Shown piece after piece: positions 5,694 through 6,855 of a stretch of DNA of 24,381 bases. Numbering within the stretch: position 1 is the stretch's first letter; each line of letters begins with the position of its first letter. The stretch covers positions 1 through 24,381 of the forward strand of contig NZ_CP075086.1 in the NCBI RefSeq assembly GCF_023035295.1, written 5' to 3'. The notes below the pieces were generated by a model. It did not search any database and was not told the origin of the DNA. It was given only the letters and a program-made list of their open reading frames with translations. Both the position numbers and the translations under genes were made by a program. The stretch comes from Borrelia coriaceae (GTDB lineage: Bacteria; Spirochaetota; Spirochaetia; Borreliales; Borreliaceae).

Positions 5694-5705
5694 ATATTAC
5701 GTGCC

Positions 5706-5980
5706 CTATGAATAATAATCCTGCTAATATTAAGCAAGATGCAGTTATAGCCGGAGCGATAGCATTGAGAGCTATGGCAAAGAGCGGTAAATTTACTGGT
5801 CCTAGTAGTTCTACTGGTGACTATGTTATTGTAGTTAAAGGCGCAGCAGTAAGTGCAGTAAATACATTAACTATTGCAATAAGAAAAACAATAGATGAAA
5901 GACTTAAAATTGTTAAAGATACTATGAAACTTAGTACTAATGATGCTCCTGTAATTAATGAAACTGTTACTAATAAGTAA
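5706..5980 (+). pseudogene. vlp: vlp 3' fragment, inverted
   Basis: The 90-codon reading frame from ATG 5708 is the C-terminal end of a Vlp, not an independent gene: AGAIALRAMAKSGKFTG, SAVNTLTIAIRKTIDERLK and a short tail, as in the ends of 8200-9261 and 13281-14306. It has no ribosome binding site, signal peptide or promoter. It is the only Vlp sequence on the plus strand. Its terminator-type hairpin lies at 6024-6060. It is the displaced 3' part of the cassette at 6104-6855, moved by inversion. Confidence 0.9.
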
Positions 5981-6023
5981 AAATTTAAAATAAAGATAAG
6001 TAAACAAAATCATAAAGTTATTG

Positions 6024-6060
6024 AAGGAAAACAACTTTCATACAGAGAATTGTTTTCCTT
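6024..6060 (+). terminator. Intercassette hairpin in the inverted segment
   Basis: AAGGAAAACAA (6024-6034) pairs with TTGTTTTCCTT (6050-6060), followed by a T run, on the plus strand after the inverted vlp 3' end. It is the same element as the other cassette hairpins, in flipped orientation. Confidence 0.7.
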
Positions 6061-6103
6061 TTTTTTATTTAGCCTCTTTAGTTAAGGGATAAGTTTAAAA
6101 GGA

Positions 6104-6855
6104 GGCACTTAAAAGCGTCACCTTCATTCCCTTTAGCAATAGCTTGTAATATGTCAGCGCCAATTACTGCTCCCACTGCTTTAGCAGCATCAGCTGCTGC
6201 CTTTTTACCATCTGCACCAGCATTATCAGTAGCAAACAACTTCCCAGATTCATCAGAAGTAGAATTACCACCAGTTCTCCCACTAAGATCTGTAGCTTTT
6301 TTATCATCCCCAGCAGAAGCATTGCCTATATCTTTAAGTACCACGTCCACAATTGACTTAATACCATTAACTAACTTATCAATGTCAGTCCCGACAACAC
6401 CGGCATTAGTATCAGCCACATTGGCAATTGGCTCATTACCTCCAGCACCCTTCAAAGCCTCACTTGCCCCATCAATTATCTTACTAAGTTTTCTCAATTA
6501 ATTTTTTTACTTCAGTCTCTACAATAGTAGCATTAGGATTTTTTTCGATCTTCATATTTTCAACAAGTTTCTCAAGCTTATCCTTAGTGCCTTGTACAGT
6601 CTCTTTTACTGTCTTAAAATAAGCACAGCAACATCAGACTTCTTAGTAAGAAGTATTAAACCCTAATACACCCCCAAGTGAATCCCCAAAAGAAGTAAAA
6701 ACAGATAAGAAGTCACTACCTAAATTAGCAAGTGAGGATAAGAAATTATTTCTCTTCTCAAGTTCTTCTATCCCATTATTACAAGAAAAGAATAAAGATA
6801 TAAATAATGTTGCACAAATACTTTTTATCTTAATATTTTTAACATTTATTTTCAT
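6104..6855 (-). pseudogene. vlp: vlp cassette, group 3, broken by frameshifts and inversion
   Basis: Begins with a normal Vlp start (MKINVKNIKIKSICATLFIS, Cys25) and GGAGGCACGTAAT leader. The frame reads to GVLGFN, then hits TAA near 6644 because of a one-base gain just before ACTAAGAAG and a two-base gain (GT) before GCTTATTTT, which together restore frame. Next follows YFKTVKETVQGTKDKLEKLV to EVKKLIEK, where an extra A in GAGAAAACTT (near 6490) shifts frame again. The remaining frame gives SKIIDGASEALKGAGG and GAVIGADILQAIAKGNEGDAFKC, and there the coding sequence is cut at 6104 by the inversion. Its 3' end lies inverted at 5706-5980. Three independent lesions mark it as a donor-only or decaying copy, unless homopolymer errors contribute. 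Confidence 0.85.

What the first reader, a model, noticed from the sequence alone, without database searches (positions are those of the whole stretch)
5697..6112. 398-bp inversion that simultaneously breaks one vlp and swaps the leader of its neighbour
TTACGTGCC at 5697 (leader of one vlp) and TTAAGTGCC read on minus at 6112 (inside another vlp) flank a flipped segment with a vlp 3' end, hairpin and leader. Computed by hand, flipping it back joins GACGCTTTTAAGTGC in frame to CCTATGAATAATAATCC, giving a continuous Vlp C-terminus, and gives the gene at 5693 a consensus GCCTCC (GGAGGC) leader. Both junctions heal exactly. All other Vlp sequence in the window is on the minus strand. A small invertible element between a leader and a coding region would be a new way of changing a vlp leader.
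Basis: partly seen in the sequence, partly recalled or inferred. Interest (0 to 1): 0.8.

Follow-up and report, generated by a model that had tools for sequence, protein, structure and literature searches.

The report
Small inversion in silent vlp array
In a relapsing-fever spirochaete, a 398-base piece spanning the end of one silent surface-protein gene and the start region of the next has been turned around; the flip is real in the sequence but looks like a rare, probably neutral accident in an already broken gene, not a working switch.

Summary
Window 5706-6103 is an inverted piece of a vlp array of a relapsing-fever Borrelia: the 3' end of one vlp (5708-5980, + strand), a hairpin and leader-side intergenic DNA. 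The arms TTACGTGCC (5697-5705) and GGCACTTAA (6104-6112) match at 8 of 9 bases, 5 exact at the junction. This was shown by aligning the existing pieces separately with paralogues. It is the only opposite-strand vlp segment in the window plus 12 array stretches examined, and of 96 distinct leaders only this one is followed by vlp coding. The 'invertible element' reading is not supported: arms of this grade are plentiful (1198 pairs, about 1108 expected), no PF00239 match is in the genome, no PF00589 match is on this contig, the broken gene has lesions outside the segment, and half of the leaders lack GGAGG. Partial vlp inversions also occur in B. persica (3, one approximate), B. miyamotoi (1) and an unnamed species (1); the B. 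miyamotoi one is the same in all 6 records that hold most of the locus. Best explanation: a rare microhomology-associated inversion in a decaying silent gene. Orientation in reads was not testable.

The parts
4635..5693 (-). vlp gene A, open (352 aa, PF00921); its upstream region is altered by the inversion
5640..5705 (-). conserved vlp leader / signal-peptide segment of gene A; homology with other leaders stops about here
5697..5705 (+). left arm TTACGTGCC of the imperfect inverted repeat; exact core GTGCC 5701-5705
5706..6103 (+). inverted 398-bp segment
   Evidence: opposite orientation to both flanks relative to own paralogues
5708..5980 (+). 3' end of a vlp (90 codons, Pfam profile positions 229-298), the only vlp sequence found on + in the window
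6024..6060 (.). hairpin followed by T on +, terminator-like by inference; carried inside the flipped piece
   Evidence: DNA fold z -4.43; the consensus terminator scan, limited to loops of 3-8, did not flag it
6101..6105 (+). GGAGG of the leader-side sequence, facing away from gene A and straddling the right junction
   Evidence: read directly; usual position in paralogues
6104..6112 (+). right arm GGCACTTAA of the inverted repeat, inside gene B; GGCAC occurs only twice on + in the 11.35-kb array
6105..6855 (-). vlp gene B remnant: 5' and middle parts only, with stops at 6645 and 6636 in the frame of the 5' part and a frame change near 6490-6497, all outside the flipped segment
   Evidence: Pfam match for the middle part only

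Best explanation
A single inversion of 398 bp happened inside a silent vlp array, between two short imperfect inverted repeats: one in the leader of gene A, one in the coding part of gene B. A likely route is replication template switching or break repair that used the 5-bp GTGCC microhomology. It removed the 3' end of a vlp copy that carries other lesions, and replaced the DNA upstream of a neighbour with antisense vlp sequence. Because such copies act, if at all, as gene-conversion donors, the change probably has little effect: gene A keeps the conserved leader segment up to 5705. Shown: the orientation, the breakpoints, the lesions outside the segment, the absence of a second copy, and the rarity in the stretches examined. 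Well supported: in-situ origin. Inferred: silence of the array, the mechanism, neutrality and one-off character.
For: Piecewise orientation and contiguity in paralogues. Single minority-strand segment in 13 own records. In-situ origin: Spearman 0.73 over the 81 ORFs hit by both pieces, order right in 74 of 81; no second copy of the segment, next best 75% identical. Junction microhomology 5 bp, 0.7% of random pairs. Arms ordinary in number. Lesions in gene B outside the segment. Partial inversions inside vlp genes elsewhere: B. persica L022, L024 (approximate), L038; B. miyamotoi L062; unnamed G002 L110. The B. miyamotoi case is the same in 6 of 6 records covering at least 80% of the locus. Leaders often lack GGAGG (PMC2525819 passage).
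Against: No reads and no second isolate, so fixation of this inversion is not shown. The flipped 3' end is still an open 90-codon frame and the hairpin is intact, so the event may be recent. The order of events (inversion before or after the other lesions) is unknown. The score correlation shows a shared Vlp subfamily rather than proving one gene, and single ORFs depart from it (L048_11323 ranks 12 for one piece, 58 for the other). B. persica L024 has a similar geometry with 8-bp exact arms, which could hint at a preferred kind of site. The yeast spacer inversions that suggest the mechanism had arms over 9 bp and far shorter spacers (PMC8604942).
Confidence: 0.8

Rival explanations
1. A live invertible element: the segment flips back and forth in the population and toggles the state of two vlp copies.
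For: Both junctions have inverted microhomology; the flipped 3' end is still open; six PF00589 matches exist in the genome.
Against: Arms are 8 of 9 and of a grade with 1198 pairs in the array; no PF00239 match and no PF00589 match on this contig; no such junction seen at the other 95 distinct leaders; gene B has lesions outside the segment, so no orientation gives an undamaged gene; the B. miyamotoi analogue is the same in 6 of 6 records covering it (two of them may be one isolate sequenced twice).
Confidence: 0.06
2. Assembly artefact: a wrong consensus at a repetitive array.
For: vlp arrays are repetitive; inverted duplications are reported to lower nanopore read quality in Borrelia (PMC10580987, passage seen); no reads were available.
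Against: The segment is single copy and at most 75% like any other place found in the genome, so repeat confusion over 398 bp is unlikely; the breakpoints coincide with inverted microhomology; similar cases exist in other assemblies, one in 6 records.
Confidence: 0.07
3. Imported segment: gene conversion copied a 3' end and leader region from an oppositely oriented paralogue.
For: Gene conversion between vmp copies is the known process in these bacteria (PMC6011951, PMC12510640, passages seen).
Against: No donor found: the best other copy is 75% identical, and the vlp of each of the 12 other stretches runs one way. The flipped piece has similar paralogue affinity to gene B and covers the part of the Vlp that gene B's remnant lacks.
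Confidence: 0.05

Closest known systems
Silent vmp (vlp/vsp) archive of relapsing-fever Borrelia with gene conversion into one expression site (B. hermsii UHS/DHS system; PMC6011951, passages seen)
   Same: PF00921 Vlps in a tandem array with a shared 5' segment, like the archived copies.
   Different: Known switching is non-reciprocal conversion between homologous 5' and 3' flanks, not inversion; the inverted segment here is not such a step.
Spacer inversion by template switching between short inverted repeats (yeast, PMC8604942, abstract and passages seen)
   Same: Short inverted arms, spacer inverted, arms kept.
   Different: The yeast cases have spacers of a few bp and arms over 9 bp, and the study looked at spacers up to 70 bp; here the spacer is 398 bp and the exact arm 5 bp.
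vls silent cassette arrays of Lyme Borrelia, and vlp/vsp genes in opposite orientations (PMC11499132, passages seen)
   Same: Silent arrays diverge by point mutations, indels, duplications and rearrangements; vlp/vsp gene segments are often in opposite orientations.
   Different: The passages seen do not describe partial-gene inversions with short inverted repeats at the ends.
Site-specific invertible promoters and genes (Hin, fim type; recalled, no call)
   Same: A DNA segment between inverted repeats is flipped next to a leader.
   Different: No recombinase found nearby, no long or reused recognition sites, no second orientation seen.

Membership tests
Silent vlp gene of relapsing-fever Borrelia | PF00921 (Lipoprotein_2) domain | tested here: met
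   Gene A, gene B's middle piece 6078-6497 (profile 74-200) and the flipped piece 5708-5980 (profile 229-298) score over the cut-off; gene B's 5' piece 6643-6930 gave no family
Silent vlp gene of relapsing-fever Borrelia | Shared conserved 5' leader segment | tested here: met
   110 copies in window and 12 stretches
Silent vlp gene of relapsing-fever Borrelia | No own promoter (silent) | tested here: inconclusive
   Promoter-like sites in 5400-7100 close to shuffles (9 against mean 6.4, sd 2.6); transcription not testable
Site-specific invertible element | Distinct inverted repeats beyond chance at the ends | tested here: not met
   8 of 9 arms; 1198 pairs of equal grade in the array against 1107.6 in Markov-1 sequence
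Site-specific invertible element | Cognate recombinase gene nearby | tested here: not met
   PF00239: no match in genome; PF00589: 6 matches, all on C2-C6, none on C11. Other recombinase families, such as the telomere resolvase, were not searched
Site-specific invertible element | Both orientations present in the population | not testable with these tools
   No reads and no near strain; one copy found in the genome
Inversion between short inverted repeats (template switching or repair) | Inverted microhomology at both junctions | tested here: met
   5 bp exact, reached by 0.7% of 200,000 random pairs
Inversion between short inverted repeats (template switching or repair) | Conservative: segment kept once, no gain or loss | tested here: inconclusive
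   Single copy; order as in paralogues for 74 of 81 ORFs, gap between the pieces median about 10 aa, range -18 to 27, in the top 20. Base-for-base conservation not tested
Inversion between short inverted repeats (template switching or repair) | Replication or repair intermediates | not testable with these tools
   needs experiment

The most novel reading that the evidence does not exclude
Partial inversions of silent vlp copies are a recurrent, still active process in relapsing-fever Borrelia. The conserved leader or intergenic DNA supplies one arm and vlp coding sequence the other. Individual archive copies are thereby moved reversibly between usable and unusable donor states, as a second layer next to gene conversion.
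Probability: 0.06. Interest if true: 0.75.

Novelty: new member of a known kind. Interest (0 to 1): 0.3.

Why it matters
If ordinary, it is a clean example of how a silent antigen archive decays: one small inversion takes out the end of one copy and the upstream DNA of another. Together with the partial inversions in B. persica, B. miyamotoi and an unnamed species, it suggests that small inversions are a recurring source of vlp pseudogenes. If flipping were live, it would be a new kind of variation in a well-studied antigenic-variation system, and reads could test it directly.

Tried and rejected
Looked for an orthologous locus in another strain: PLSDB search of 4600-7000 found 95 records, none with one place covering 80% of the query, and the best place of every record under 90% identity. 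So orientation could not be compared between strains.

Looked for an invertase: no PF00239 match, six PF00589 matches on other contigs; not evidence for a site-specific system. Other recombinase families were not searched.

Looked for a donor copy elsewhere in the genome: none found.

Considered the leader change as functional: judged unlikely, because half of the distinct leaders lack GGAGG.

Considered a breakpoint hot spot near 0.70-0.77 of the Vlp length, since several partial inversions end there. Not claimed: that region is variable, and alignment ends fall there anyway.

Five flagged rows (L023, L096, L107, L112, L115) are strand switches that I could not resolve as clean partial inversions; L120 repeats L038. 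L015 is a longer strand switch and was not counted; L063, flagged, was not pursued. L022 was seen but missed by the rule, so counts from that rule are lower bounds. L024's two parts leave a stretch of the Vlp unaccounted for (0.71 to 0.84), so it is only an approximate parallel.

Junction repeats in L062, L022 and L038 could not be placed confidently (none of 6 bp or more for L062 in the zones tried).

In one search the 103 records that cover less than 80% of the B. miyamotoi locus were not examined for orientation.

Full report
Where this is. The window is contig C11, bases 1-24381, of a genome of 1.79 Mb in 24 contigs. Its vlp genes (PF00921) and partition genes match Borrelia, mostly relapsing-fever species. 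No near strain was found: the best place in each of 95 PLSDB records is under 90% identical and none covers 80% of 4600-7000; listed matches in other genomes of the genus reach 73% at most over 6104-6900. The window array has ten vlp loci by leader and frame, six open and four broken (my count).

The observation. The arms and coordinates are as written, except that they match at 8 of 9 bases and the exact inverted match at the junction is 5 bp. The three existing pieces, 5640-5705, 5706-6103 and 6104-6500, were aligned separately with the window and 12 stretches of the same genome. In paralogues the outer pieces match in one orientation and the middle piece, lying between them, in the other; L049 14844-15719 is the clearest. 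The only middle-piece hits in the leader's orientation are short ones within the self-complementary hairpin. The whole-genome search agrees: many middle-piece matches reach query position 513 (window 6112, the far end of the right arm), while leader matches stop mostly at 104-107 (window 5703-5706; one at 110) (40 of 252 candidates scored).

Is it more than chance? tblastn with six window Vlps shows one minority-strand segment in 13 records, window 5711-5962. The 12 stretches do not hold every vlp of the genome: one search lists matches on C12, C17 and C19 outside them, in the same strand as the rest of their contig. Of 110 leader copies, 108 have 60 nt beyond them in hand and 96 of these are distinct; blastx finds Vlp coding beyond one only, that at 5640 (15 residues, E 0.007). 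In Pfam terms the flipped piece covers profile 229-298 and gene B's middle piece 74-200. Of 90 own ORFs of 250 aa or more, 81 are hit by both protein pieces; their scores correlate (Spearman 0.73; 0.79 if the nine others are counted in with zeros), and in 74 of 81 the gene-B piece lies before the flipped piece, with gaps of median about 10 residues (range -18 to 27) in the top 20. The correlation shows a shared subfamily and does not by itself prove one gene. No second copy of the segment was found; the next best place is 75% identical. Together these make inversion in place the best reading.

The breakpoints. Random pairs of breakpoints 200-700 bp apart in the array have 5 bp or more of inverted microhomology in 0.7% of 200,000 draws, and GGCAC occurs only twice on the + strand of the 11,352-bp array. 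The event therefore probably used the microhomology. But 9-bp arms of this grade are common: 1198 pairs with spacers of 50-1000 bp, against a mean of 1107.6 in ten Markov-1 sequences. Nothing marks these two as recognition sites. No PF00239 match was found in the genome, while the same search rang in 10 of 14 control genomes; six PF00589 matches lie on C2-C6.

What it does. In the frame of gene B's 5' part there are stops at 6645 and 6636, and the frame changes near 6490-6497. Neither lesion is in the flipped segment, so no orientation of the segment gives an undamaged gene. Gene A is open (352 aa) and keeps the conserved leader segment up to 5705. It lacks GGAGG at the usual place, but only 48 of 96 distinct leaders carry it there (CCTCC on the other strand), and in B. 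duttonii 19 of 68 vlp copies were reported to have it (PMC2525819, passage seen). Archived copies act as donors for one expression site (PMC6011951, PMC12510640, passages seen), so I infer little effect on gene A beyond a shorter stretch of upstream homology. That this array is silent was not tested.

Is it alone? I scanned other Borrelia for vlp pieces lying on the opposite strand between same-strand vlp flanks. One search examined 106 records, 1,649,648 bases (count) with 809,904 vlp-like (some contigs are held twice), and flagged 11 rows. A sixth, L022 of B. persica, was seen but not flagged. The other five rows (L023, L096, L107, L112, L115) stay unresolved. L024 resembles the window most: a vlp 3' end, hairpin and intergenic DNA inverted between a gene body and the upstream region of the next gene, with 8-bp exact arms TCTTCTTT 9196-9203 and AAAGAAGA 9656-9663; part of its Vlp is unaccounted for. 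The B. miyamotoi place is present at 99.9-100% identity over the full query in 6 of 6 records that cover at least 80% of it. Two of the six have the same length and may be one isolate, and 103 records with shorter matches were not examined. So that inversion looks fixed among those isolates.

Verdict. A real, single, microhomology-associated inversion in an already damaged vlp copy, one of several such places in vlp arrays of the genus. The mechanism (template switching or repair) is inferred from the arms by analogy with spacer inversion between short inverted repeats in yeast (PMC8604942, abstract and passages), where arms are longer and spacers far shorter. A live switch is improbable but not excluded, because no reads and no second isolate were at hand.

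Print. Searches for Borrelia or relapsing fever with inversion and vlp, vmp or small-inversion terms (two listed 12 of 41 and 12 of 26 papers) showed no description of partial vlp inversions in the listings, or in the passages seen of PMC10580987, PMC6011951, PMC6945570, PMC12510640, PMC11499132, PMC4718594 and PMC2525819. None of these papers was read whole, and most subscription papers are not held. Opposite orientation of vlp/vsp gene segments is known (PMC11499132 passage).

Noticed in passing
L110 1740-2741 (G002:C8): A vlp remnant in an unnamed Borrelia seems to hold a nested double inversion: its 5' part is flipped and a piece inside that is flipped again.
   Followed up: partly
L062 6189-7120 (B. 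miyamotoi NZ_CP114725.1): The middle of a vlp pseudogene (about 0.30-0.75 of the Vlp) is inverted, and identically so in six PLSDB records.
   Followed up: yes
L024 9194-9655 (B. persica): Inversion with geometry like the window's and 8-bp exact inverted arms.
   Followed up: partly
G000 C9/C14; C17/C21/C24: Blocks of vlp arrays give the same match scores on two or three contigs of the same genome, as if duplicated.
   Followed up: no
window 4130-4526, 9667-10470, 10797-11710: Three further broken vlp loci in the same array besides gene B.
   Followed up: no
window 152-1456, 1607-2581, 2900-3853: Three genes between the contig end and the vlp array: one without a Pfam match, one matching CRASP-2, one matching BBH37.
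   Followed up: no
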